Assembly: GCA_026416715.1 (NCBI GenBank)
Contig: JAOAEQ010000031.1
Coordinates: 1-31,456, forward strand
From: a bacterium
GTDB taxonomy: Bacteria; UBP4; UBA4092; JAOAEQ01
Direction of reading: 5' to 3'
Length of the DNA: 31,456 nucleotides
The notes beneath the pieces were generated by a model that ran no database searches, had not been told where the DNA came from, and was given only the letters and a program-made list of their open reading frames with translations. Shown here piece after piece: positions 2,000-31,041 of the stretch (its first letter is position 1; each line of letters begins with the position of its first letter). The translations under genes and the position numbers were made by a program.

Positions 2000-3190
2000 T
2001 TAATTTTTTGTTGCGTTCATTCGTTCAATAGCCGGATGAATAAATATAGCCGCTGCTTTTCGAGTCAGCCAAGCCCGTTCCAATTCTTCTTTTTTATAAA
2101 CGATATGCCCGGTTTCTTCGGATTTCGCTGCAGGATCATTACATATCGGGTCACCTTGGGGAGTAAATCCGCGACAAACTATGATATGCCCGTTAGTAGA
2201 TTTGACGGGAGCATTGCTTAGTACCCCTTTGGGATAGGCAATGGAAAGAATAACCGGATGACCAGCTGCAATTTCTTTTTTAATTTCATCAAATCCGTTA
2301 CAATAGCGTACCCAAGCGCGATATCCTAATGTTCCTGCAAAAGCAGCATTATAACTCCAGTTACCGTAAATGCCATTATAATCATCCCAAACACAGCGAG
2401 CTACCTCGGCAGTTGGAAGATTAGTTCCGTAGTACTCTAATATCATAGCTAACGAGGTCGGATGACAAGCGCGCCAGGAAATGGTTTTATCTTCATACAG
2501 TTGCGAACGATACGGAACAGGTAAATCTTTAGCCCAATCTGGAGAAATAGATTCTGAGGTTTGAGTATCAGAGAAGGGTAGTAACCTATCAACGAGTTCG
2601 ATTCGATGTTTCATATCTGCATAGGAAACACCAAACAAATTTAAAATCGGACTTGTTGACGAATCTATGGTCATCAATGTTATACGAAATCGAAAATACC
2701 GACTGCCAACCCGCAATTTCAATTCGTCTTCTTTAACATATCCCCATAATCCGCGTTTGATTTTTTCCGGATTATCCAACTGTTTATCACCATACGTGGC
2801 AATTTCATACCATGGTGACCAACGGGAAAAATAATTTGATTTAACCTGTATTTCAATTTTTACGGCGGTTCCTTTCGGCAGGAGAGCATTCCATGAAGTA
2901 ACTAGCGTTGTCGCTAGGAATTTGGTTTTTATTGACGGAGAAACTATCATTCCCGATGACATAAATTTTCCTGTAGTGGTTTTGGCTAATTCAAATCCCG
3001 CTGCCAGGTCATTGTAAACGATGTTATACAAATGACAATATTCAAAATCAGATTTCGTTTGATATAAGATTAAATCTACTTGTGGAACCAAAAGCGGTTT
3101 TGATTCAAGATTGGTGATACCTATAGTCAAGCTACCTAACAATACCATAATCGTTATTCCTACCTTTTCAATAATAACATAATTGTTCAT
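2000..3190 (-). CDS. Exported protein with C-terminal C39-like papain-fold peptidase domain
   Basis: 396 residues from the ATG at 3190. A TTG at 3208 with AGGA five bases upstream would add six residues, and I cannot decide between them. A hydrophobic N-terminus (GITIMVLLGSLTIGIT) looks like a signal peptide or anchor. Residues about 60-195 look like a beta-sandwich module, with alternating aromatic/hydrophobic strands such as SRWSPWYEIATYG and SRYFRFRITLM. Residues about 220-385 match the Peptidase_C39_2 type. Numbered from the TTG, the candidate catalytic residues are Cys248 in RACHPTSLAM, His341 in NGHIIVCRG and Asp358 in CNDPA, with Gln236 as a possible oxyanion residue. The Gly usual after the catalytic Cys (CGPTS) is His here. 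Probable secreted cysteine peptidase or peptide-binding protein; substrate unknown. It precedes ispG by 55 bases. Confidence 0.75.
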   Translation of the reverse strand: MNNYVIIEKVGITIMVLLGSLTIGITNLESKPLLVPQVDLILYQTKSDFEYCHLYNIVYNDLAAGFELAKTTTGKFMSSGMIVSPSIKTKFLATTLVTSWNALLPKGTAVKIEIQVKSNYFSRWSPWYEIATYGDKQLDNPEKIKRGLWGYVKEDELKLRVGSRYFRFRITLMTIDSSTSPILNLFGVSYADMKHRIELVDRLLPFSDTQTSESISPDWAKDLPVPYRSQLYEDKTISWRACHPTSLAMILEYYGTNLPTAEVARCVWDDYNGIYGNWSYNAAFAGTLGYRAWVRYCNGFDEIKKEIAAGHPVILSIAYPKGVLSNAPVKSTNGHIIVCRGFTPQGDPICNDPAAKSEETGHIVYKKEELERAWLTRKAAAIFIHPAIERMNATKN

Positions 3191-3259
3191 AGAAATCGAT
3201 ACCTGCAAACAAATCCTAAACTCTATACATCATGATAACTTATTTACATAGTTGAACAC

Positions 3260-3340: not shown

Positions 3341-3775
3341 ATGGAAGCAAAGAGCCGGAATGAATTTTCTGAAATAAAATCTACTTGTTATCGGCATCCA
3401 ACTATTGTTAGTCAGACGGTTTGTTTCGGTTGTGGTAGAGCCATTTGTCATACGTGCATAACCGTAGTGGAAGGGAAAGTCTATTGTCCGAACTGTTATA
3501 TCGCCGTTGAGGTAAATAATGAACAGATAGCTGAAAGAAATGCGAATAACAAATGGTATTACTCAATCCCTTTCGTTTTATTAATGCTTTTTGCTATTGC
3601 TGGACCGTTTGCATTGCCGTTACTATGGAAAAGTCCGGAATTTAATACTACTTCTAAATTTCTACTTACAACATTAGTCATTCTCATTACGATATTCCTC
3701 ATTTGGTTCATATATTGGTTAAGTGTAACCTATCTAATTCCAAGATATAGGGATATGATGCAAATTCTGCGTTAG
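3341..3775 (+). CDS. Small membrane protein with N-terminal B-box-like zinc-binding domain
   Basis: 144 residues. The N-terminus has a Cys/His array typical of bacterial B-box-type zinc fingers: Cys16, His19, Cys28, Cys31, Cys36, Cys39, Cys49 and Cys52, enough for two zinc ions. Two hydrophobic stretches follow (about 73-96 and 107-133), so the zinc domain is probably a soluble head on a two-helix membrane anchor. Family members occur widely in bacteria, often fused to transmembrane or rhomboid domains, and no biochemical role is established. Its stop codon overlaps that of the convergent signal-peptidase-like gene: TAG at 3773-3775 against a minus-strand stop at 3772-3774. Function unknown; the zinc-binding call is from the ligand pattern. 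Confidence 0.75.
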   Translation: MEAKSRNEFSEIKSTCYRHPTIVSQTVCFGCGRAICHTCITVVEGKVYCPNCYIAVEVNNEQIAERNANNKWYYSIPFVLLMLFAIAGPFALPLLWKSPEFNTTSKFLLTTLVILITIFLIWFIYWLSVTYLIPRYRDMMQILR

Positions 3776-4875
3776 AAGAATCGTCTTCGTTGTGGCGGGT
3801 CGTAAATAAACCACAGTTTTCCAATAATTTTTTCTTTCGGAACCGAGCAGACACGTTGCCAGGTTTCTAATGGAGCAAATCTTGCATTGTGTGCCTGTGG
3901 CATTCCCGTAATAAATCCAATATGGTCAGATACGGTATCACCTGGTTGCGGAATCACCGACCGTAGAATAAAATAGGTATTCTTATTGAGAGTAACTTTT
4001 AGGTTCGGCATATTTTGAGTTACTATAGGATAATATTCCGGTAATAATGGTTGGTTATTGATATAGATTTTTCTATCTTTAATTTCTACTGTTTCACCAG
4101 GTAATCCGATAACTTTTTCAATATTAGTTCCGGCAGCAATAATCCAGAGATTATCAGCACTATCCGAGACACTAAACTGGTCGGTATAATACCAAACAAT
4201 GTCCCCGCGATTCGGTTCTCGAAACCAATAAGGGACACAATTGATACAGATACGGTCTAGCTTTTGAATTATCGGAGCCAAACTATTGTTATTTATATGG
4301 ACTAATTTGAAGGCAGCCGCTAATTCAAATTGGAGAAACATAAGCAGCAAACCGTATGCAAAAAGCGCATAAAATAATGCACTCAGTTTCTGCCGTCGTG
4401 TCGGCTGGAATTCCAAATCAAAATCCTGGTTTTTCTTGATACAGGAAACCAAACCATCGACGAATGCAATAGCTATTAAACCAATCGTAAAGTAGATAAG
4501 GTAATTTGAAACAGGGTCTTTGATTTTGATAATAATACCCAAAATTAAACAGAAATAAATAGTAAAAAAAACTAACGATTTTTTCCATTGTCGATTATAG
4601 AGTTGGCCTAAACCAGGAACAAGTGATAACCATGCTGCCCACCAGGGGCGACGGAGTAACTGCCATTGCATTTCAGCATATTGAACAGCAGATTTTAAAA
4701 CATCTGTCCGAAGCTTTAATCTGAAAGTAACATTGCGCCATCGGCGTAATGATTTTGTTCTAGGAAAAGAAGGTAATTTAATTTCCGCAGGTGGACTTGT
4801 AGTAAATTTTTCTCCGCAAACAAAACAAGTTTGATTTTCGGTAGGATTAAATATTCCGCATCGCGGACATTTCAT
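3772..4875 (-). CDS. Zinc-ribbon / multi-TM / signal peptidase I-like fusion protein
   Basis: 367 residues. A zinc ribbon opens the protein (Cys3, Cys6, Cys17, Cys20). A membrane module follows, with hydrophobic stretches near 78-118 (including VPGLGQLYNRQ, a motif common in small membrane proteins) and 125-146. A third helix at about 164-192 leads into an S26 signal-peptidase-like domain. The presumed nucleophile is Ser198 in NNNSLAPII. The GLPGE box at 257-261 (IEKVIGLPGETVEI) is clear, but where type I peptidases have Lys-Arg before the VxGLPGD box this protein has Glu253-Lys254. The C-terminal GD...SxDSR box is degenerate (PGDTVSDHIG). It is either a diverged peptidase using Lys254 or an inactive relative. 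It is the last gene of the Ycf46 cluster and 65 bases after the DUF2997-like gene. Confidence 0.75.
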   Translation of the reverse strand: MKCPRCGIFNPTENQTCFVCGEKFTTSPPAEIKLPSFPRTKSLRRWRNVTFRLKLRTDVLKSAVQYAEMQWQLLRRPWWAAWLSLVPGLGQLYNRQWKKSLVFFTIYFCLILGIIIKIKDPVSNYLIYFTIGLIAIAFVDGLVSCIKKNQDFDLEFQPTRRQKLSALFYALFAYGLLLMFLQFELAAAFKLVHINNNSLAPIIQKLDRICINCVPYWFREPNRGDIVWYYTDQFSVSDSADNLWIIAAGTNIEKVIGLPGETVEIKDRKIYINNQPLLPEYYPIVTQNMPNLKVTLNKNTYFILRSVIPQPGDTVSDHIGFITGMPQAHNARFAPLETWQRVCSVPKEKIIGKLWFIYDPPQRRRFF

Positions 4876-4940
4876 ACTAACACTAATAACACAGAAGAGT
4901 AATCATTTTGTAGCTATAATCGCTAGAAATAATCGTTATG

Positions 4941-5159
4941 TTATACCTTACGATGTATCGATTGCGTTGCGCTAGGGGTAATTCCGATTTCAGGTTCAGG
5001 TTCATATCGCTTAATATTAACTTGGTCTTCTTTCAACGTTCCAATCATTTTGGTTAATACATTTACATATTCGACAACATGTGTTCCCGCAATATCTTTA
5101 AACCGCACTACTACTTCACCGGATTTAGTTATTTCAATATCAAATTGTTCACTTGGCAT
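4941..5159 (-). CDS. DUF2997-like small protein
   Basis: 72 residues. The pattern D/E-I-x-I-x-x-x-G-x-V-x-x-x-x-x-x-x-x-G followed by an amphipathic helix and a KRYEPEPEIG tail resembles DUF2997 proteins. Those are small proteins of cyanobacteria and other bacteria found beside Ycf46 ATPases and DUF1257 (Ycf35) proteins. The family often has a Cys after the G-x-S motif; here that part reads AGTHVVEYV, with no Cys anywhere in the protein. Function is unknown for the whole family. Its place in a cluster with Ycf46-like and Ycf35-like genes supports the call, which otherwise rests on a weak short-sequence match made by eye. It lies 58 bases after the TPR gene and 65 before the peptidase-like gene. 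No clear ribosome binding site is seen. Confidence 0.6.
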   Translation of the reverse strand: MPSEQFDIEITKSGEVVVRFKDIAGTHVVEYVNVLTKMIGTLKEDQVNIKRYEPEPEIGITPSATQSIHRKV

Positions 5160-5197
5160 AGGGTAGAACCAAAATCAAAATCCTAATATAACATACC

Positions 5198-5211
5198 CCT
5201 GCAAAAGCAGG
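5198..5211 (-). repeat. Intercistronic hairpin after the TPR gene
   Basis: CCTGC-AAAA-GCAGG on the plus strand, so CCTGC-TTTT-GCAGG in the mRNA: a 5-bp stem with a four-base loop, six bases after the TPR stop codon. No T-tract follows, so it may be an mRNA processing or stability element rather than a terminator. A similar hairpin lies at 6667-6686. Confidence 0.4.
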
Positions 5212-5217
5212 AAGATT

Positions 5218-6009
5218 TTATTTTCTAAAAGGGCTGATAATCCAGAAAAATAATCGCGCAAACCATTTCGTTCTATTAACTTTTGCCCAAGCTCGAACCG
5301 CAGGTTTATATATCGGGTCAAGTTCTAACGCCTGCTGATAACATTGAATCGCTCGAGTATAAAATCCTAATTTCTGATTACATAATCCAATCATATACCA
5401 AAGATAAGGACTCTGACTATTTTTTGATGCAGCATTAGAAAAATAGGTTAGTGCTTTATTATATTGACCAGCTTCGAAGTAAGCTAATGCAACTTGCTGG
5501 TTCATAAACCAATCATTTTGAGTTAGTTCGATCGCTTTATCAAAACAAAACTGCGCATTTCGACTCCGTTTACATAAAAATACCTGACCTCGAGCAAGCC
5601 AGCAGTATGCTGTAGGAGCTTTCTGCTCTAAGGATAAATCTGAAATTCCTATTGCTTGTTTAAGCATTCCTAATCGGCAATACACCACTGATTTAGCAGC
5701 TAATAATTCTGATTCACCCGGAAATAGTTCTAACGCTTTGTTAACCCAAACATGCGCTTCTCGATACTCCCCCATACCTAATAACGCTTTAACCTGACCG
5801 ACCCAAGCGGGAACAAGCGTATTATCTATACCTAACGCACGGGAATAATAGCGTAATGCTTTTTCGTATTCGCCTTTTCGATAATATTCTTCCGCTTGTG
5901 CAAAATAATAATCTTGATTATATCCCTCTTCTATGGGTTCCGCTGGCGTTAGTAATTCTTCTTTTTTTGCTTTTTTATCTTCTAATTCTAATTTTGAAAA
6001 GCGTCCCAT
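5218..6009 (-). CDS. Tetratricopeptide (TPR) repeat protein
   Basis: 263 residues, no signal peptide and no membrane segment, so probably cytoplasmic. After a charged N-terminus (LELEDKKAKKEELL) come about six TPR units of 34 residues with the W/L-G-Y-A-P consensus. Clear ones include EYYRKGEYEKALRYYSRAL, ALLGMGEYREAHVWVNKAL, ALAYFEAGQYNKALTYFSNA and GLCNQKLGFYTRAIQCYQQA. The C-terminus ends in a basic/aromatic tail (WFARLFFWIISPFRK) that could touch a membrane or partner. TPR proteins are scaffolds; the partner is unknown. Position between the Ycf35-like and DUF2997-like genes suggests a scaffold for the Ycf46 system. A 165-base AT-rich gap (6010-6174) separates it from the upstream gene, so an internal promoter is possible. 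Confidence 0.8.
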   Translation of the reverse strand: MGRFSKLELEDKKAKKEELLTPAEPIEEGYNQDYYFAQAEEYYRKGEYEKALRYYSRALGIDNTLVPAWVGQVKALLGMGEYREAHVWVNKALELFPGESELLAAKSVVYCRLGMLKQAIGISDLSLEQKAPTAYCWLARGQVFLCKRSRNAQFCFDKAIELTQNDWFMNQQVALAYFEAGQYNKALTYFSNAASKNSQSPYLWYMIGLCNQKLGFYTRAIQCYQQALELDPIYKPAVRAWAKVNRTKWFARLFFWIISPFRK

Positions 6010-6174
6010 AAAGTAGAATCCAACTGCTAATTTTCTGTTCTATTTAAAATCTATATAATCTATTTACAATCTATGTAGTAATTATTTTTAAAATTTATAT
6101 TCAAATTTCTCAATCCAGAATCGCAATAAATTTGTTGACGCTTAAAGCTAGCTAGTGACTTCGGACTACTCTTA

Positions 6175-6645
6175 TCATCGCCATCGGCGAACGGTCAGCT
6201 GGATTGAATCCTGTTCTGTCCTCTGTTCACTGACCACCGTTAATCCTTTCGTAGGCAACTCTCTCGTGACTTTATTATATACAAACTGCTGGATAATTTT
6301 TTGCGATATTTCAGTTCCAATCTCTCGTAGTTCCTGAGCTAATTTATTTTGTCCCCAAACAGTTATATTGCATTTTCCACGATGGTCAACCCGAAAGGTT
6401 ATCACCACATCATTTTTTGCAACCTGCATTTGTGTTTCGGTTCCGAGCGATTCTCCTACCACCTCGGTATTAGGTAACTCTAATTCTACAGTGATACCTT
6501 TATTTTTCAGATCGCGTCGGACAAACTTTCGTTCGTGTAATAGTCCATAACCCATCGCTCCTGTTACAGCTAAAAGAATTGGTAGCAGAGCTGGCCAAGT
6601 TGTCGCAATTGCTGGAACGATTACGTATATCATTGGAACTGCCAT
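6175..6645 (-). CDS. Membrane-anchored Ycf35/DUF1257-like protein
   Basis: 156 residues from the ATG at 6645; a TTG at 6660 would add five more. Residues about 5-36 form a hydrophobic hairpin or one long membrane segment (ATTWPALLPILLAVTGAMGYG). The C-terminal third has the hallmark of DUF1257/Ycf35 proteins: I-x-Q-x-Y/F-x-Y-N-x-V, then a spacer, then E-Q-x-x-E/D-x-S-I-x-L-x-V-x-R-W. Here these are IIQQFVYNKV at 117-126 and SEQRTEQDSIQLTVRRWR at the end. Ycf35 is encoded by plastids and cyanobacteria and by many bacteria beside Ycf46; its function is not established. Standard members are soluble, so the N-terminal membrane segment is unusual. It follows the Ycf46-like gene by 41 bases with a hairpin between. 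Confidence 0.6.
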   Translation of the reverse strand: MAVPMIYVIVPAIATTWPALLPILLAVTGAMGYGLLHERKFVRRDLKNKGITVELELPNTEVVGESLGTETQMQVAKNDVVITFRVDHRGKCNITVWGQNKLAQELREIGTEISQKIIQQFVYNKVTRELPTKGLTVVSEQRTEQDSIQLTVRRWR

Positions 6646-6666
6646 AGTATCAAGCCCCAAATCATC

Positions 6667-6686
6667 ATACTCGCAAAAGCGAGTAT
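6667..6686 (-). repeat. Intercistronic hairpin after the Ycf46-like gene
   Basis: ATACTCGC-AAAA-GCGAGTAT: a perfect 8-bp stem with a four-base loop (TTTT in the transcript), starting at the base after the Ycf46-like stop codon. No T-tract follows, so it is more likely a transcript-stability or processing hairpin, or a partial attenuator between the first two genes. Confidence 0.55.
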
Positions 6687-8246
6687 CTATAATTCTAATT
6701 TTCGTTTTTCAACTTTTTTTATTTGTTCCGGTTCAGTTATCGAAGAAGCGCGACGCGCTCTTCCTTCCGCCCATTGCCGAAGTTGTTCGATTTCTTCCCG
6801 CATCGTTTTTGATAACGGCATGGTTTCTTTTATATTATGAAGAATCAGTGCCGTGGTTAACGGTTCGTGTGCTGCAAAAGCTTCATATAATGCAGAAATA
6901 ATTACCTGTTCGATTTCAGCACCAGAAAATCCCTCCGTTGCTTGCGCTAATTGTTCAATATCAAATTCTTCCGGTATCCGATTTCGTTTTGCGAGATGAA
7001 TCCGAAATATATCGCTTCGTTCCCAGAAATTCGGTAAATCAATAAAGAATATTTCATCAAATCGCCCTTTCCGGAGTAACTCCGGTGGTAATTGAGTAAT
7101 ATTGTTTGCGGTAGCGATGACAAAAACCGGTGCGGTTTTTTCTTGCAACCAGGTAGTGAATGTACCAAATACGCGCGCCGTAGTTCCAGCATCGGAAAAA
7201 GACGAACTATGAATTCCGGCAAAAGATTTATCAATTTCATCAATCCATAATATCGTCGGAGAAACGGATTCTGCAACTTTAATCGCTCGACGTACATTGT
7301 CTTCAGAAGAACCAACCAAACTTCCGAATAGTCTACCCATATCTAATCGGAGTAAAGGAACTTTCCATAATGCTGAAACCGCTTTTGCACTTAAACTTTT
7401 CCCACAACCTTGAACTCCGATAAACAATACGCCTTTTGGTGCTGGAAGACCAAACGAACGCGCTTGTTCACTGAATGCTAGACGTCGGGTATGCAACCAT
7501 TCTTTCAATGCATCAAGTCCACCAACTTCATTGAAATTTTCGGTTGCGGCATAGTATTCAAGAAGCCCAGATTTTCGGATTATCTGCTGTTTTTCGGAAA
7601 AAATCTCGGTGATACTCTCTTCATCTAGTTTCCCCTGTTGAACAATGGTTTTTGCGAAGACATTCTCTGCTTCTTTTATAGTTAAACCCAGGGCTGCGTG
7701 CAGAATTTTTTCTCGGGTTTCCGGTTCAAGCGCAAATCGGATATCAGCCTCTCGTGGTAAATCCGCTAATACCCGGTCGAGTAGTTCACTTAATTCGTCT
7801 AGTGTTGGTAAATCAAAATCAATTACCGTTATATCTTTTTCTAATTCTGGCGGTAATGTTAAAACCGGAGCTACTAAAACCAAGGTTTTATAACTATTTC
7901 GGAGATAATTGGATACTTCCCGCAATTTGCGTTTAACGGTAGCTTCATTTATAAACGAATGGAAATCTTTAAATAAAAATATTGCAGGTTCAACAGATTC
8001 GATTACTGCATCTAACGCTAGCAAAGGGTCTGAGGTCGGGACATTTTTATATTTTTGTGCTTGTGCAGAAACGCCGTAAGGAATTAGCCCTTGATTAATA
8101 GTCCAGGTATAAAGTTTTTTATCTCGTGACTTAACGATACTTAATAATGCAGATTCAACTCGGTCTTCTTCCCAGGTTACAATATAAAGAATTGGGTACC
8201 GGGCACGGATTAAAATTTCAATTTCTTGAATTTGTCGTTTGGACAT
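6687..8246 (-). CDS. Ycf46-type AAA+ ATPase
   Basis: 519 residues from the ATG at 8246, preceded by AAGGT. I chose it because Ycf46 proteins start shortly before an [11 protein letters not shown](I/L)xY(I/L)VTxEE segment, here [18 protein letters not shown]. An ATG at 8327 would add 27 residues but lacks a ribosome binding site. Residues about 1-230 form the family-specific N-terminal domain. The AAA+ module follows: Walker A GVQGCGKS at 277-284, Walker B ILWIDEID at 332-339, sensor-1 ATANN near 378-382, arginine finger in KGRFDE near 395, sensor-2 GFSGAEIE near 440. The GxQGCGKS form of Walker A is characteristic of Ycf46. The family is conserved in red-algal plastids, cyanobacteria and many bacteria; its client is unknown. 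First gene of the cluster. Confidence 0.85.
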
Positions 8247-8351
8247 AGACGCAGTTACCTTATCCAAGTATTCCCGGTTGCATATTCTTGTTAAAAGGCT
8301 GTTATTTCCTAATGTATAATTATACATAACAATAGCTAAATATTCATATTT

Positions 8352-25449: not shown

Positions 25450-26508
25450 ATGCTAGAAAATAAAATTTTAATGCGGGGAAATGATGCCGTTGGAGAAGGG
25501 GCGATTCGAGCAGGGTGCCGTTTTTATGCCGGGTATCCGATAACCCCACAGAATGAATTGACTGCATATATGGCAGTGCGTATGCCGGAAGTGAACGGAA
25601 CATTTATCCAAGCGGAAAGTGAATTAGCAGCAGTAAATATGGTTTTTGGTGCATCAGTTGCTGGAGCACGGGCGATGACTTCTTCTAGCAGTCCGGGCAT
25701 AAGTTTGAAGCAGGAAGGATTATCATATTTAGCTGGGTGTATGCTTCCGGCGGTTATTGTAAACGTTATGCGAGGAGGTCCAGGACTTGGAAATATTGCT
25801 GCTTCACAATCCGATTATTTTCAGGCAACAAAAGGCGGTGGACACGGAGATTATCGTTTAATCGTACTAGCTCCGAGTTCAGTTCAAGAAATGGCTTGGT
25901 TTACCTACCAAGCATTTGATTTATCGGATACATACCGTGTTCCGGTGATGATATTAGCCGATGGTATTTTGGGTCAGATGAGCGAACCTTTAATTCTCCC
26001 GGAAATGAGAAGTTTAGATACTTTACCAAGAAAAAATTGGGCGTTAACGGGATGTAAGGATCGAAAAGCACAGTCAATTCAGTCATTATTTCTTGGTCAT
26101 GGTGTACTTGAAGAACATAACCGCAAGTTACAAAACATCTACCGGCAGATTGAAAAGAACGAAATTAGGTATGAGGATTATTTAATTGATGATGCAGAAT
26201 ATGTAATTGTCGCATTCGGTTCCGTGGCGCGAATTGCTCGCGCTGCAGTAGACCGATTAAGAAAAGAACATGTTAAAGCAGGATTAATTCGTCCGATAAC
26301 ATTATATCCGTTTCCCTATCAACACATCAATGACGTTGCGGATAATGTCAAACGATTTCTAACAGTGGAAATGAATATGGGGCAAATGGTAGAAGATGTC
26401 CGATTAGCAGTTTTTGGTAAGGCACCGGTGGATTTCTATGGGAGAACCGCTGGGGGGATTCCAGAAGTTGAAATTATCGTTGAATATATTCAGCGATATT
26501 GTCATTAG
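25450..26508 (+). CDS. korA: 2-oxoacid:ferredoxin oxidoreductase, alpha subunit (KorA/VorB-like)
   Basis: 352 residues. Contains the pyrimidine-binding (PYR) domain of the enzyme, which with the beta subunit binds thiamine diphosphate and converts a 2-oxoacid plus CoA to acyl-CoA, CO2 and reduced ferredoxin. Signatures: RGNDAVGEGAIRAGCRFYAGYPITPQNE near 9-36 (two overlapping family motifs, GNDAVGEGA and YPITPQ), QAESELAAVNMVFGAS, TSSSSPGISLKQEG and VMRGGPGLGNIAASQSDYFQ. The C-terminal domain has VAFGSVARIARAAV and GLIRPITLYPFP. The length and the GGPGLGN and GGHGDYR segments match KorA/VorB proteins and not PorA, so the substrate is 2-oxoglutarate or a branched-chain 2-oxoacid. No clear Shine-Dalgarno. 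First gene of korABC. Confidence 0.88.
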   Translation: MLENKILMRGNDAVGEGAIRAGCRFYAGYPITPQNELTAYMAVRMPEVNGTFIQAESELAAVNMVFGASVAGARAMTSSSSPGISLKQEGLSYLAGCMLPAVIVNVMRGGPGLGNIAASQSDYFQATKGGGHGDYRLIVLAPSSVQEMAWFTYQAFDLSDTYRVPVMILADGILGQMSEPLILPEMRSLDTLPRKNWALTGCKDRKAQSIQSLFLGHGVLEEHNRKLQNIYRQIEKNEIRYEDYLIDDAEYVIVAFGSVARIARAAVDRLRKEHVKAGLIRPITLYPFPYQHINDVADNVKRFLTVEMNMGQMVEDVRLAVFGKAPVDFYGRTAGGIPEVEIIVEYIQRYCH

Positions 26509-26548
26509 TTGTTTTTCTAGTATGTAGATTTGTAAAAATATAAGGACT

Positions 26549-27289
26549 ATGGAGAAAATATTTAGTAAACCCGAGTCGCTAACTGATACGAAAACTATTT
26601 ACTGTTCAGGTTGTGGCCATGGAATTGTGCATCGGTTGATTGCAGAAGTTATTGATGAACTTGGATTACGTGAACGAACGGTTGGGGTGGTTCCGGTAGG
26701 TTGTGCGGTTCTCGGTTATGATTATTTTAATTTCGATACGACTGAAGCGGCGCATGGTCGAACCCCAGCGGTAGCAACAGGGATAAAGCGGGTCCTACCA
26801 CACAATCTCGTTTTCAGCTATCAAGGGGATGGCGATTTAGCGGCTATCGGAACTGCGGAAATTATCCATAGTGCTAATCGCGGTGAACGGATAACCGTTA
26901 TTTTTATCAATAATGCAGTGTATGGAATGACTGGCGGGCAGATGGCACCTACGACGATTCTCGGTCAGAAAACGGCGACTACTCCGAAAGGGCGCGATGC
27001 GCGGGTAGATGGATTTCCATTAAGAATCTCGGAATTATTAGCAAATCTTGATGGAACAGCATATATTGAGAGAACAGCGGTTAATACACCGAAAAATATC
27101 CGGAAAACTAGGTTAGCAATAAGAAAAGCATTTGAATTGCAGTTGCAAGATGTTGGGTTCACGATGGTAGAAATTCTGTCTATGTGTCCTACCGATTGGC
27201 ATTTAACTCCGCTAGAATCATGTCGATGGATTGATGAAGTTTTATCAAAAACTTTTCCATTAGGAGTTATTAAAGATTTCACAAAATAA
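26549..27289 (+). CDS. korB: 2-oxoacid:ferredoxin oxidoreductase, beta subunit (KorB/VorA-like)
   Basis: 246 residues. Thiamine-diphosphate-binding subunit. The PP/Mg site is GDGDLAAIGTAEIIHSANR with Asn at VIFINNAVYGMTGGQ, the GDGD...NN signature. Cluster-type cysteines at the N-terminus: Cys19, Cys22 (YCSGCGH) and Cys52 (VGCAV). AAHGRTPAVATGIKR and the tail MCPTDWHLTP are typical of KorB/VorA. The short length sets it apart from the 309-residue PorB further on. It lies 40 bases after korA and 3 bases before korC, so it is in the same operon. Confidence 0.88.
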   Translation: MEKIFSKPESLTDTKTIYCSGCGHGIVHRLIAEVIDELGLRERTVGVVPVGCAVLGYDYFNFDTTEAAHGRTPAVATGIKRVLPHNLVFSYQGDGDLAAIGTAEIIHSANRGERITVIFINNAVYGMTGGQMAPTTILGQKTATTPKGRDARVDGFPLRISELLANLDGTAYIERTAVNTPKNIRKTRLAIRKAFELQLQDVGFTMVEILSMCPTDWHLTPLESCRWIDEVLSKTFPLGVIKDFTK

Positions 27290-27292
27290 ATT

Positions 27293-27835
27293 ATGCATGA
27301 AGAAATAATTGCTGCGGGATACGGTGGTCAAGGGTTGGTTTTTCTCGGTCATGTTTTAGCGCATCTGGGAATGTTGCTCGGCAAAAATGTAACTTCATTC
27401 CCTTCCTACGGAGCGGAAATGCGCGGGGGAACTGCTCATTGCGCGGTTATCATTTCCGATACCGAAATTGCCTCACCAGTAGTCGAACGACCTACTTCAT
27501 TAATTGTTATGAATCAGCAATCATTGGACAAATTTGAAAAAGAGTTATTACCAAACGGGACAATCGTTATCAACAGTTCGCTAGCGAAAGTTGCTAACCA
27601 GAGAAAAGATATACAGTACAATTTCATACCAGCAAGCGAATTGGCTGATAAACTCGGGAATATTCAAACCGCAAATATGGTGATTTTAGGGGCATATTTG
27701 AATCTGATAAAGTTAGCGACAATAACTCAAACGGAACAAGCGTTACGTGCGGTTTTGTCGTCGAAACGCGCCCATTTAATTGATATAAATCTAAAAGCAT
27801 TGCAAGTAGGATTTGAGTATAGGAGTGAGAAATAA
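27293..27835 (+). CDS. korC: 2-oxoacid:ferredoxin oxidoreductase, gamma subunit (KorC-like)
   Basis: 180 residues. Gamma domain with the nucleotide-fold opening IIAAGYGGQGLVFLGHVLA, then SFPSYGAEMRGGTAHCAVIIS, the hallmark YGxExRGG motif, and the end segment TANMVILGAYLNLIKL. It takes part in the subunit core around the CoA-binding and cluster region. Three bases follow the korB stop, so translation is probably coupled. It closes the first operon; the next promoter starts 27 bases later. Confidence 0.87.
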   Translation: MHEEIIAAGYGGQGLVFLGHVLAHLGMLLGKNVTSFPSYGAEMRGGTAHCAVIISDTEIASPVVERPTSLIVMNQQSLDKFEKELLPNGTIVINSSLAKVANQRKDIQYNFIPASELADKLGNIQTANMVILGAYLNLIKLATITQTEQALRAVLSSKRAHLIDINLKALQVGFEYRSEK

Positions 27836-27862
27836 ATTTTACAAATTTCACTGGATAATATG

Positions 27863-27892
27863 TTTACAAAAGTATCTCGTATTTGGTATAAT
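27863..27892 (+). promoter_or_regulatory. sigma-70-type promoter for porGDAB
   Basis: TTTACA (27863-27868), 18-base spacer, TATAAT (27887-27892). 11 of 12 consensus bases, just after korC. Gives a leader of about 75 bases containing a hairpin. Confidence 0.8.
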
Positions 27893-27916
27893 AAATGTAA
27901 CAAAATATAAAAGTTA

Positions 27917-27948
27917 TAAGGCTTCGAGGCGAAAATCAAGAAGCCTTA
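27917..27948 (+). repeat. Leader hairpin upstream of porG
   Basis: TAAGGCTTC (27917-27925) and GAAGCCTTA (27940-27948) around a 14-base loop, between the promoter and the AAAGGAGGT ribosome binding site. No T-run suited to a terminator. Possible mRNA stabiliser or regulatory leader. Confidence 0.5.
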
Positions 27949-27975
27949 ATTTATGTTCAAAGGAGGTAGTTTATC

Positions 27976-28551
27976 TTGGCAAAGATGGTAGAGATACGAT
28001 GGCATGGTCGCGGTGGTCAAGGGGTTAAAACTGCAGCGACAATGCTTGCAGAAGCAGCGTTAAATGAAGGAAAGTTTTCCCAAGGGTTTCCAGAATATGG
28101 TCCAGAACGGATGGGAGCGCCCGTGCGAGGATATACGCGATTGAGTGATTCTGTGATTAATATCCATTGTGCAATATACAATCCACAAGTAGTTGTTGTA
28201 CTAGATCCGACCTTACTAGGCAGTGAAAATATTGCAGAAGGATTGGTTGAAAATGGCAAGATACTAGTGAATACGCCGTTATCTCCAGCGGAAGTGAGGA
28301 GACAAATTCAGTTAAATGGAACCGCAAAAATTTATACGGTAAATGCGACGCAAATCGCGTTAGATGAATTAAAACGTGAAATACCGAATATGCCGATGCT
28401 AGGCGCGTTAGTCCGGATTGCAGAAGTGCTCAAACTTGAAACGATTGAAGAAGATTTAAAAAAGAAATTCGGTAAAAAGTTCCGGGCTGAAGTTGTCGAA
28501 GGCAATCTGCGCGCAGTTCGTCGTGCATATAATGAAGTTAAAGGAGAATAA
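27976..28551 (+). CDS. porG: Pyruvate:ferredoxin oxidoreductase, gamma subunit
   Basis: 191 residues from TTG 27976, chosen because AAAGGAGGT ends eight bases upstream; an in-frame ATG lies three codons later. The N-terminus has EIRWHGRGGQGVKTAATMLAEAAL, then FPEYGPERMGAPVRGYTRLS, the conserved gamma motifs of archaeal-type four-subunit pyruvate synthase. PNMPMLGALVRIAEVL is near the C-terminus. First gene of porGDAB, the order usual for heterotetrameric enzymes. The two operons are similar in type but clearly not recent copies, since their gamma subunits differ throughout. Pyruvate is the expected substrate from the subunit set and alpha length. Confidence 0.92.
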   Translation: MAKMVEIRWHGRGGQGVKTAATMLAEAALNEGKFSQGFPEYGPERMGAPVRGYTRLSDSVINIHCAIYNPQVVVVLDPTLLGSENIAEGLVENGKILVNTPLSPAEVRRQIQLNGTAKIYTVNATQIALDELKREIPNMPMLGALVRIAEVLKLETIEEDLKKKFGKKFRAEVVEGNLRAVRRAYNEVKGE

Positions 28552-28556
28552 CCCGT

Positions 28557-28859
28557 ATGGTAAAAGATAAGAAAGAAACTTGGAAAGAATTACCGGAAGG
28601 AGTGCTTATATTAGAAGCAGGTAATGCGGATAAATATGAAACCGGTTCTTGGCGAACCTATCGTCCGAGATATATTCAAGAAAACTGTATCCATTGTTTA
28701 TTCTGCTATATATATTGTCCGGATTCAGCAGTTTTTGTAAAAGATGGTAAACGAGGTGAATTTGATTATGCTCATTGCAAAGGTTGCGGAATTTGTGCGA
28801 AAGAATGTCCGGCGAAAAATAAAGCGATTGTTATGGAGTTAGAAATTAAAGACAAATAA
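28557..28859 (+). CDS. porD: Pyruvate:ferredoxin oxidoreductase, delta subunit (ferredoxin-like)
   Basis: 100 residues. Two [4Fe-4S] motifs: Cys44, 47, 50, 54 (NCIHCLFCYIYCP) and Cys74, 77, 80, 84 (HCKGCGICAKECP). The preceding GSWRTYRPRYIQENC is the standard PorD lead-in. It passes electrons from the cluster in the beta subunit to free ferredoxin. Five bases separate it from the porG stop; the porG end supplies AAGGAG as its ribosome binding site. Confidence 0.94.
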   Translation: MVKDKKETWKELPEGVLILEAGNADKYETGSWRTYRPRYIQENCIHCLFCYIYCPDSAVFVKDGKRGEFDYAHCKGCGICAKECPAKNKAIVMELEIKDK

Positions 28860-28884
28860 AATTTTTTAAGAGAGGGAATGATGT

Positions 28885-30087
28885 ATGGCAGTAGTTAACG
28901 CTAAAGAAGAATTGATTGTATCACTTACCGGCAATGATGCAGTCGCTGAAGCGATGCGGCAGATTAATCCAGATGTGGTTGCCGCATATCCGATAACTCC
29001 GCAAACTGAATTAATGCATAAATTTGCGGAATATGTTGCTGATGGACTCGTGAAAACCGAATTTGTTCTAGTAGAATCAGAACATAGTGCAATGAGTGCA
29101 TGTATTGGTGCTTCAGCTGCAGGAGCGAGAGCGATGACTGCGACATCGGCGTGCGGTTTAGCTTTGATGTGGGAGGTATTATATGTTGCTGCGGGAATGC
29201 GATTGCCGATTGTTATGACCGACGTTAATCGCGCACTATCCGCTCCGATTAATATCCATTGTGACCATAGCGATACTATGGGAGCTCGCGATAGTGGCTG
29301 GATTCAGCTATATGCCGAAAATGCACAGGAAGCCTATGATAATGTGATTCAAGCGATTCGGATTGCTGAACATCCGAAAGTTAGACTCCCGGTAATGGTT
29401 TGTATGGATGGATTTATTATCAGCCATACGAATGAACGGCTTGAACTACTACCGGATGATGTGGTAACAAATTTTGTGGGTGAATATAAACCAGAACATT
29501 ATCTGCTTGATGTTGACCATCCGGTAACGTTTGGTCCATTAGATTTACAGGATTACTATTTTGAACATCGGCGGCAGCAAGCAGAAGCGATGCGGAACGC
29601 TGGTCCAATTATTCTTGACATCGGAAAAGAATTCGAAAAAATTTCCGGTCGTTCTTATGGATATTTTGAAGCGTATAGAATGGACGATGCGGAATTAGTT
29701 ATCATCTGTCTCGGTTCAACTGCGGGGACAACGAAAGTGGTGGTTGACCAGTTACGAGAAAAAGGGAAGAAAGTCGGATTGCTTAAACCACGGGTATTTC
29801 GTCCATTCCCATATCAAGAGTTAATCAACGTACTAAAGAACGTTAAAGCGGTTGCGGTGCTTGACCGGTCAGATTCGTTTAACGGATTCAGTGGCCCGTT
29901 ATTTAGTGAACTCCGTGGTGCACTCTACGGTTCAGAAGCAAATCCGAAAATAGTTGATTATATTTATGGGTTAGGTGGACGAGATATTGGATTAGAAGAA
30001 ATTGAACGGGTTTATACTGATTTAGATACAATTGTTAAAACCGGTAAAATCGAACAGTTAGTGACCTATTTAGGCGTTCGTGAATAA
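28885..30087 (+). CDS. porA: Pyruvate:ferredoxin oxidoreductase, alpha subunit
   Basis: 400 residues, the usual PorA length. Signatures: LTGNDAVAEAMRQINPDVVAAYPITPQTE near 14-42 (GNDAVAEA and YPITPQTE motifs), LVESEHSAMSACIGASAAGARAMTATSA, PIVMTDVNRALSAPINIHCDHSD, then VMVCMDGFIISH. The last third has IICLGSTAGTTKVVVDQLR, LLKPRVFRPFP and VAVLDRSDSF. It carries the PYR domain and forms the active site with PorB. Start ATG 28885 follows AGAGGGA. Gene spacing of 25 bases to porD and 24 to porB fits one operon. Confidence 0.95.
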   Translation: MAVVNAKEELIVSLTGNDAVAEAMRQINPDVVAAYPITPQTELMHKFAEYVADGLVKTEFVLVESEHSAMSACIGASAAGARAMTATSACGLALMWEVLYVAAGMRLPIVMTDVNRALSAPINIHCDHSDTMGARDSGWIQLYAENAQEAYDNVIQAIRIAEHPKVRLPVMVCMDGFIISHTNERLELLPDDVVTNFVGEYKPEHYLLDVDHPVTFGPLDLQDYYFEHRRQQAEAMRNAGPIILDIGKEFEKISGRSYGYFEAYRMDDAELVIICLGSTAGTTKVVVDQLREKGKKVGLLKPRVFRPFPYQELINVLKNVKAVAVLDRSDSFNGFSGPLFSELRGALYGSEANPKIVDYIYGLGGRDIGLEEIERVYTDLDTIVKTGKIEQLVTYLGVRE

Positions 30088-30111
30088 ACTTAATTAACGA
30101 GAGGGAATATT

Positions 30112-31041
30112 ATGGCAGTCAATCTAAAACAAATATCAAATAAACCGGATTTACTGACCGGTGGACATAGAGCCTGTGCAGGTTGTACCGGTCCGAGTAT
30201 TATTCGTCAAGCGTTACTCGCTTCTGATTATCCAGTAGTATGCAGTTCTGCTACCGGATGTATGGAAGTGGTTACTACGATATTTCCATATACTGCTTGG
30301 CGGGTACCGTTTATCCATAATGCGTTTGAGAATTCTGCAGCAACCATGAGCGGAGTTGAAGCAGCATATCAATCGCTTAAACGACAAGGGAAGATTAATA
30401 AAGAAATCCGATTTATCGCTTGGGGCGGAGATGGTGGAACCTATGATATTGGATTTCAGTCGTTATCTGGAGCGATGGAACGTGGCCATCGGATGCTTTA
30501 CATCTGTTATGATAACGAAGGATATATGAATACCGGAATCCAGCGGTCCGGTTCAACTCCGAAAGGAACCGCAACCACTACTACTCCGGTTGGGAAAAAA
30601 GTTGTCGGAAAACAGCAGTATAATAAAGATTTAACGTTAGCGATGATTGCGCATCATATACCTTTTGCAGCGCAAGCGTCAGTTCACAACTTCCGTGATT
30701 TCATGGAGAAAGTTCAGCGAGCGTTAGCGGTTGATGGACCATCGTTTATCAACGTTTTATCACCATGTAATCGTGGTTGGCGAGTTCCAATTGAAGACTC
30801 GATAGCAGTAGCGCGTATGGCTACCGAAACCTGTTTCTGGCCATTGTTTGAAGTAGAAAATGGTAAATGGAAACTAAACTATAAACCGAAAGAGAAAAAA
30901 CCAATTACGGAATGGTTGAAAATGCAGGGGAGATTTTCCCATTTATTTAAACCGCAGAATCAACATATAATAGATGAGATACAAGCTGAAGTTGACCGAA
31001 GATGGGCTGAACTTTTAGCGCGATGCGAACAAAATAAATAA
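30112..31041 (+). CDS. porB: Pyruvate:ferredoxin oxidoreductase, beta subunit
   Basis: 309 residues. Thiamine-diphosphate-binding subunit with one [4Fe-4S] cluster. Cluster cysteines: Cys22 and Cys25 (RACAGCTGP), Cys50 (ATGCMEVVTT) and the late Cys in LSPCNRGW. The Mg/PP site is AWGGDGGTYDIGFQSLSGAMERGH with YDNEGYMNTGIQRSGSTPKG as the second half (shown as two motifs). Start ATG 30112 follows GAGAGGGAA. It is the last gene of porGDAB. Together the four subunits interconvert pyruvate and acetyl-CoA with ferredoxin, in either direction depending on metabolism. Confidence 0.95.
   Translation: MAVNLKQISNKPDLLTGGHRACAGCTGPSIIRQALLASDYPVVCSSATGCMEVVTTIFPYTAWRVPFIHNAFENSAATMSGVEAAYQSLKRQGKINKEIRFIAWGGDGGTYDIGFQSLSGAMERGHRMLYICYDNEGYMNTGIQRSGSTPKGTATTTTPVGKKVVGKQQYNKDLTLAMIAHHIPFAAQASVHNFRDFMEKVQRALAVDGPSFINVLSPCNRGWRVPIEDSIAVARMATETCFWPLFEVENGKWKLNYKPKEKKPITEWLKMQGRFSHLFKPQNQHIIDEIQAEVDRRWAELLARCEQNK

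What the first reader, a model, noticed from the sequence alone, without database searches (positions are those of the whole stretch)
3772..8246. Ycf46 / Ycf35-like / TPR / DUF2997-like / signal-peptidase-like cluster
Seen: five minus-strand genes in a row, encoding an AAA+ ATPase with the GVQGCGKS Walker A of Ycf46, a protein ending in the Ycf35/DUF1257 signature but carrying a membrane segment, a TPR scaffold, a DUF2997-like protein and a zinc-ribbon membrane protein with a peptidase-like domain. Known: ycf46, ycf35 and DUF2997 genes co-occur in cyanobacteria and other bacteria, and their biochemical role is not established. Inference: in this non-photosynthetic-looking setting the module may be a membrane-linked ATPase remodelling system, with the Ycf35-like protein as anchor, TPR as scaffold and the peptidase-like protein as client or processing partner. 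The membrane anchor and the peptidase fusion set it apart from the standard set.
Basis: partly seen in the sequence, partly recalled or inferred. Interest (0 to 1): 0.75.

Follow-up and report, generated by a model that had tools for sequence, protein, structure and literature searches.

The report
Ycf46 ATPase module with dead peptidase
Five neighbouring bacterial genes, built around the poorly understood ATPase Ycf46, are part of a gene set that stays together across several bacterial phyla, usually beside a pilus-motor gene and always with a membrane protein whose signal-peptidase domain, when present, has lost its active site, which gives a testable lead on what Ycf46 does.

Summary
Five minus-strand genes at 3772-8246 encode a Ycf46-type AAA+ ATPase, a DUF1257/Ycf35 protein with a hydrophobic N-terminus, a TPR protein, a DUF2997 protein, and a zinc-ribbon membrane protein with a signal-peptidase (S26) domain.

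The neighbourhood is conserved. Of 80 Ycf46 loci from named genomes, 10 carry the long DUF1257 form. All 10 also carry DUF2997, the membrane protein and TPR; 8 carry a PilT-family motor ATPase (the other two end at a contig edge) and 7 a radical-SAM gene. Of 27 loci with classical DUF1257, none has TPR or PilT and one has an S26-like gene. The module occurs in Verrucomicrobiota, Planctomycetota and several unnamed lineages. The window has the five-gene core without PilT or radical SAM.

The S26 domain is catalytically dead: catalytic lysine 0/29 against 26/26 in real signal peptidases, serine 4/29 against 26/26. Its top structural match is SipA, a dead signal peptidase essential for pilus polymerisation in Streptococcus, tied with LepB.

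Best guess: a Cdc48-like ATPase with small adaptors and a membrane receptor that handles pilin-like or exported membrane proteins. The module is well supported; the mechanism is inference. I found no description of the extended module in the literature available.

The parts
6687..8246 (-). Ycf46-type AAA+ ATPase, 519 aa (an in-frame ATG at 8327 would give 546 aa)
7395..7418 (-). Walker A GVQGCGKS
   Evidence: aligned in all module AAA proteins
6175..6645 (-). long DUF1257/Ycf35-type protein with hydrophobic N-terminus, 156 aa (161 aa from TTG 6660)
5218..6009 (-). TPR protein with N-terminal GRF..LE motif, 263 aa
4941..5159 (-). DUF2997-type protein, 72 aa
3772..4875 (-). zinc ribbon + three membrane helices + catalytically dead S26 domain, 367 aa
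4816..4869 (-). zinc ribbon of the S26-like protein (C3-C6-C17-C20)
4327..4587 (-). predicted membrane helices, residues 97-183
3775..4314 (-). dead S26 (type I signal peptidase fold) domain, residues 188-367
4117..4119 (-). Glu253 at the position of the catalytic Lys of signal peptidases; Ser198 (4282-4284) is kept

Best explanation
The five genes are the core of a conserved multi-gene module: Ycf46 AAA+ ATPase, long DUF1257 protein, DUF2997 protein, TPR protein and zinc-ribbon/membrane/dead-S26 protein, elsewhere usually joined by a PilT-family ATPase and a PflX-like radical-SAM protein (shown). Most likely it works as a membrane-linked ATPase machine. The zinc-ribbon membrane protein is a receptor or docking platform. 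Its S26 domain, on the outer face of the membrane, can bind but not cut signal-peptide-like segments, as SipA keeps an empty cleft. The zinc ribbon and the TPR protein recruit the cytosolic Ycf46 ring. The DUF1257 and DUF2997 proteins act as adaptors of the ring, and ATP hydrolysis then assembles, extracts or recycles the bound membrane protein (all inferred). The likely clients are pilin-like or other exported proteins of type IV pilus/type II secretion-like systems, because a PilT-type motor belongs to the module in most lineages (inferred).
For: Core conserved in at least 15 other loci with shuffled order. Among 80 Ycf46 loci, 10 have the long DUF1257: S26-like 10/10, TPR 10/10, DUF2997 10/10, PilT 8/10; the TPR, PilT and S26 profiles were built from other loci. 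Module PilT proteins form their own clade apart from other PilT paralogs, except one truncated copy. Where unclustered, the parts still co-occur in a 40-genome phylum: S26-like genomes all have DUF1257 (19/19; Fisher 6e-5; 0.007 by family). Dyad loss; SPase I fold with SipA on top, Z 11.3 over 131 residues, tied with LepB. Module genomes carry a median of 8 PilT paralogs against 2 in a baseline of 95. A second DUF1257-DUF2997 pair of this genome lies downstream of GspE/GspF-type genes. Synechocystis Ycf46 loss lowers activity of an extracellular enzyme, EcaB (PMC7496141).
Against: The window's own cluster has no PilT or radical-SAM gene. Its genome's best PilT lies elsewhere in another context, and its radical-SAM homologue is an ordinary one. 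In L106, L135 and probably L140 the membrane protein has no S26 domain, so that domain cannot be universally essential. Many Ycf46 proteins, including cyanobacterial ones, live without this module. No direct interaction was tested. The AAA proteins of the module fall in one part of the tree, so the loci are not independent.
Confidence: 0.4

Rival explanations
1. General inner-membrane protein quality control, like a reduced Cdc48/Derlin pathway: dead membrane-protease folds recognise misfolded or orphan membrane proteins and the Cdc48-class Ycf46 ring extracts them; pili are only one client or none.
For: The closest solved AAA domains are the second (D2-position) domains of Cdc48/p97. In four module loci a rhomboid-like membrane gene lies directly before the radical-SAM gene, and its active-site Ser seems to be kept in only one of four. 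Derlins, the eukaryotic partners of p97, are dead rhomboids (own knowledge).
Against: Does not explain the constant PilT partner. The rhomboid-like gene is absent from most module loci and from the window.
Confidence: 0.3
2. Metal or redox-linked maturation: the radical-SAM protein, the zinc ribbon and, in cyanobacteria, a neighbouring ferredoxin point to Ycf46 as a chaperone for a modified or metal-bearing protein.
For: Radical SAM with conserved cysteines in 7 of 10 module loci; DUF2997-ycf35-fed7 cluster in Synechocystis (PMC4284462); stress response of the ycf46 operon to iron and sulfur shortage (PMC7496141).
Against: No radical SAM beside the window cluster. Does not explain the dead S26 domain or PilT.
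Confidence: 0.15
3. The S26-like protein is an active protease with other catalytic residues, a dedicated peptidase for module clients.
For: Ser198 is kept in the window copy, and a Lys (254) sits one residue from the dyad position.
Against: The Lys column is never Lys in 29 members and Ser is kept in only 4; the other active-site blocks (GDN, SxD) are lost too. The domain is missing in some modules.
Confidence: 0.05
4. Chance or passive linkage: the genes are neighbours without working together.
For: All module AAA proteins fall into one subtree of 26, so some shared ancestry of order is expected.
Against: Order is shuffled while content is kept, across deep divergences (AAA 48-60% identity); unclustered genomes keep the co-occurrence.
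Confidence: 0.04

Closest known systems
Ycf46-Ycf35(DUF1257)-DUF2997 set of cyanobacteria, plastids and other bacteria
   Same: Ycf46-type AAA, DUF1257 and DUF2997 families; adjacency of AAA and DUF1257 also seen in cyanobacteria, Myxococcota and Hodarchaeota loci
   Different: The DUF1257 here is a long form with hydrophobic N-terminus; a TPR protein and a zinc-ribbon/membrane/dead-S26 protein are added, in relatives also PilT and radical SAM
SipA of Streptococcus pyogenes (PDB 4n31, PMC4049620)
   Same: Type I signal peptidase fold without the catalytic dyad; membrane-tethered domain; top structural match, tied with LepB
   Different: SipA has no zinc ribbon or multi-helix membrane block, serves sortase-built pili, and has no AAA partner; 20% identity over the aligned part
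PilT retraction ATPase
   Same: Pfam T2SSE, close relatives of T4P PilT; partner gene in most modules
   Different: Not present beside the window cluster; the module copies form their own clade apart from other PilT paralogs
Cdc48/p97 with Derlin (ERAD)
   Same: Cdc48-class AAA domain; dead membrane-protease partners
   Different: Ycf46 has a different N-terminal region; no ubiquitin; analogy only

Membership tests
Ycf46 AAA+ family | Full-length similarity to cyanobacterial Ycf46 including the N-terminal domain | tested here: met
   about 50% identity over residues 7-510 to Leptolyngbya PCC 7375 and other cyanobacterial loci; tree
Ycf46 AAA+ family | GxQGxGKS Walker A, Walker B DEI, arginine region of classical AAA | tested here: met
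   alignment ([23 protein letters not shown])
DUF1257 (Ycf35) | Pfam PF06868 profile match | tested here: met
   window copy alone below gathering; 34/35 aligned members match; hhalign 98.3%, E 1.4e-14 over the C-terminal 71 columns
DUF1257 (Ycf35) | N-terminal MSHFS..kTki segment of the classical form | tested here: not met
   replaced by a hydrophobic segment P....W in the long form; treated here as a separate subgroup
DUF2997 | Pfam PF11211 profile match | tested here: met
   window copy alone below gathering; 29/31 aligned members match, best 3.4e-18
Active type I signal peptidase (S26) | S26 fold | tested here: met
   (Z about 10-11 to LepB, SpsB, SipA)
Active type I signal peptidase (S26) | Catalytic Ser-Lys dyad | tested here: not met
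   Lys 0/29 and Ser 4/29 in the family against 26/26 each in real signal peptidases
Seven-gene Ycf46-PilT module described here | Five core genes together | tested here: met
Seven-gene Ycf46-PilT module described here | Module-clade PilT in the genome | tested here: not met
   best PilT of this genome (C3:142067) is a nearest outgroup of the module clade, in another context
Seven-gene Ycf46-PilT module described here | Module-type radical SAM in the genome | tested here: not met
   single hit at 135 bits against 295-416 for four module copies
IetA/IteA anti-phage ATPase | Curated cutoff for NF042959 | tested here: not met
   73 bits against cutoff 510; only the AAA domain is similar

The most novel reading that the evidence does not exclude
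An undescribed bacterial membrane machine in which a Cdc48-class ATPase (Ycf46) works with dead membrane-protease folds (signal-peptidase-like, in some lineages also rhomboid-like) as substrate receptors, and with a PilT-type motor, to assemble or extract pilin-like proteins. It would be a prokaryotic counterpart of the Derlin-p97 principle, and its core would be the ancestral role of the plastid gene ycf46.
Probability: 0.2. Interest if true: 0.85.

Novelty: new variant of a known kind. Interest (0 to 1): 0.62.

Why it matters
Ycf46 and Ycf35 are conserved from archaea to plastids, yet the papers read here describe their role as unknown or only loosely tied to carbon uptake. A conserved set of partner genes, with a membrane receptor and a motor ATPase, turns this into a question that can be tested with a handful of deletions and pull-downs in a planctomycete. 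It would also add a second case, unrelated in context to SipA, of a signal peptidase fold turned into a non-cutting receptor.

Tried and rejected
Fold of the long DUF1257 protein: no Foldseek match below E 0.001, and VIA-align best Z 7.4 (KA1-like), which is within what unrelated models give, so no fold family is claimed. Anti-phage defence: only AAA-domain similarity to IetA far below cutoff, nothing for the other parts; dropped. A module PilT hidden elsewhere in the window genome: nine PilT paralogs, none inside the module clade. The S26-like hits in L139 and L175 were set aside as ordinary signal peptidases, L156 as an odd frame overlapping the AAA gene, and the distant PilT in L134 and the weak opposite-strand TPR in L192 were not counted. 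Promoter and terminator scans of the cluster are near the shuffled expectation and say nothing about operon structure. Literature: searches joining PilT with DUF1257/DUF2997, or PilT with radical SAM and signal peptidase in Planctomycetes, found no description of the extended module; subscription papers are not held.
Full report
What is there. The window holds five minus-strand genes in a row at 3772-8246, separated by 41, 165, 58 and 65 bp. Read in the direction of transcription they are: a 519-aa AAA+ ATPase, a 156-aa DUF1257-like protein, a 263-aa TPR protein, a 72-aa DUF2997-like protein and a 367-aa zinc-ribbon membrane protein with an S26 domain. The two small proteins miss the Pfam cutoffs on their own (16.4 and 13.9 bits). 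Aligned with relatives, 34 of 35 and 29 of 31 members match DUF1257 and DUF2997, and the long DUF1257 form matches classical Ycf35 profiles with 98.3% probability and E 1.4e-14. The ATPase is a Ycf46: full-length identity of about 50% to cyanobacterial loci and up to 62% to Verrucomicrobia.

The neighbourhood is conserved, and larger than the window shows. A search with the DUF1257-like protein in 386 genomes found full-length relatives in seven other genomes, in unnamed families. Their surroundings were then read with profiles of the other parts. G273, G263 and G161 have AAA-DUF1257-DUF2997-S26/membrane-TPR; G220 and G302 have DUF1257-TPR-DUF2997 followed by the S26-like gene, in G220 with a PilT gene between. 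The extra neighbours seen there were a PilT-family ATPase and a radical-SAM protein (Pfam T2SSE 6e-49, Radical_SAM 4e-10).

As an independent check, one scan of 84,980 named genomes with the AAA alignment returned 80 loci. Ten of them have the long DUF1257; all ten also have DUF2997, TPR and the S26/membrane gene. Eight have PilT (the two without, L129 and L136, end at a contig edge) and seven have the radical SAM. Of 27 loci with classical DUF1257, none has TPR, PilT or radical SAM and one has an S26-like gene. These ten come from Verrucomicrobiota and Planctomycetota (Phycisphaerae, Planctomycetaceae, Pirellula) and one unclassified bacterium. The window matches the order AAA-DUF1257-TPR-DUF2997-S26 seen in L135, but without PilT.

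Where genes are scattered they still go together. In a 40-genome phylum (unnamed; an AAA from Sumerlaeota groups with its member G013, so Sumerlaeota is likely), the S26-like protein is in 19 genomes, DUF1257 in 28 and Ycf46 in 26. All 19 have DUF1257 (Fisher 6e-5; 0.007 when counted by family), and AAA goes with DUF1257 at 6e-5. In this phylum the DUF2997 gene lies directly upstream of the S26-like gene in most loci with enough sequence, or one TPR gene further away in L080.

The S26 protein is not a protease. In an alignment with 26 real signal peptidases from the same searches, the catalytic Ser and Lys are present in 26 of 26 controls, but in 4 and 0 of 29 members of this family; the Lys site is Glu or Gln in 20. 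AlphaFold2 gives a confident model (pLDDT 84.7): zinc ribbon, long amphipathic helix, three membrane helices, S26 domain. With the zinc ribbon inside, three helices put the S26 domain outside; positively charged inner loops fit this (inference). Foldseek and VIA-align both place SipA of S. pyogenes first (E 5.7e-6; Z 11.3, 131 residues, 3.3 A), tied with LepB and SpsB. SipA has lost the dyad, keeps the peptide cleft, shows no peptidase activity and is essential for pilus polymerisation (PMC4049620). In L106, L135 and probably L140 the S26 part is absent while membrane helices remain, so the membrane part appears to be the constant one.

The 'membrane anchor' of the DUF1257 protein is doubtful. 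The hydrophobic segment aligns with the N-terminal segment of other family members, including the DUF1257-like half of a 237-aa DUF1257-DUF2997 ORF in G001 that has no hydrophobic segment. The model shows a 14-residue helix with modest confidence. It may touch the membrane; this was not shown.

Link to type IV filaments. Module PilT proteins form a clade (SH-aLRT 95, except one truncated copy) whose nearest outgroups are PilT copies of the window genome, of G001 and of the 40-genome phylum. The window genome has nine PilT paralogs but none in the module clade, and only an ordinary PflX-like radical SAM. Genomes with the long DUF1257 have a median of 8 PilT paralogs against 2 in 95 others (p 7e-6, not corrected for genome size or kinship). 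A second DUF1257-DUF2997 pair in the window genome lies downstream of GspE- and GspF-type genes and an ECF sigma factor.

How it may work. Shown: composition, conservation, dead active site, membrane helices, Cdc48-class ATPase domain. Inferred: the membrane protein is a non-cutting receptor, TPR and zinc ribbon dock the ATPase, DUF1257 and DUF2997 are ring adaptors, and the ATPase assembles or extracts pilin-like or other exported proteins. The rivals are general membrane quality control, a metal or redox maturation role, an unconventional protease, and passive linkage; each is given with its test. The Synechocystis phenotype (lower activity of an extracellular carbonic anhydrase; PMC7496141) fits an effect on exported proteins but is indirect.

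Limits. Genes were called mechanically; the named loci are mostly metagenome assemblies with short contigs; the module loci share ancestry, so counts overstate independence; no protein complex could be modelled here. Ranking: the Ycf46-Ycf35-DUF2997 set is known, the extended module with dead S26, TPR and PilT was not found in the searchable literature, hence 'new variant of a known kind'.

Noticed in passing
L006:7805-8574 (own genome, contig C9): A second long-DUF1257 + DUF2997 pair in the same genome, preceded by a 64-aa protein similar to small proteins next to (or fused to) the radical SAM in other modules, and by an ECF sigma factor, a probable anti-sigma gene and GspE/GspF-type genes; pseudopilin-like proteins follow a few kb later.
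   Followed up: partly
L123:7301-7957, L131:7295-7954, L132:1725-2408, L133:7242-7907: A rhomboid-like membrane gene directly before the radical-SAM gene in four module loci (overlapping it by a few bases in three); the active-site Ser seems to be kept in only one of the four.
   Followed up: partly
L123:6463-7062, L125:752-1324, L128:6895-7587, L131:6480-7073, L140:3-797: ECF-type sigma factors recur a few genes before the module; may be only their abundance in these phyla.
   Followed up: partly
L113:3815-5474 (G001, same class): A single 237-aa ORF matching both DUF1257 and DUF2997, followed directly by the zinc-ribbon/S26-like gene: a natural fusion that suggests the two small proteins bind each other.
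   Followed up: partly
window 5196-5213, 6666-6684: Short hairpins with GCTTTTGC core in two intergenic gaps of the cluster; the core occurs 7 times in the window against 1.4 expected.
   Followed up: partly
window 2000-3208 and L065:6738-7919: A C39-like peptidase gene lies near the S26-like gene both here and in a genome of the other phylum (G416).
   Followed up: partly
L106:4963-5685, L135:4620-5135: Module membrane proteins without the S26 domain; in L106 it seems to be replaced by further membrane helices.
   Followed up: partly
window 25450-31041: Two sets of 2-oxoacid:ferredoxin oxidoreductase-like genes close together.
   Followed up: no
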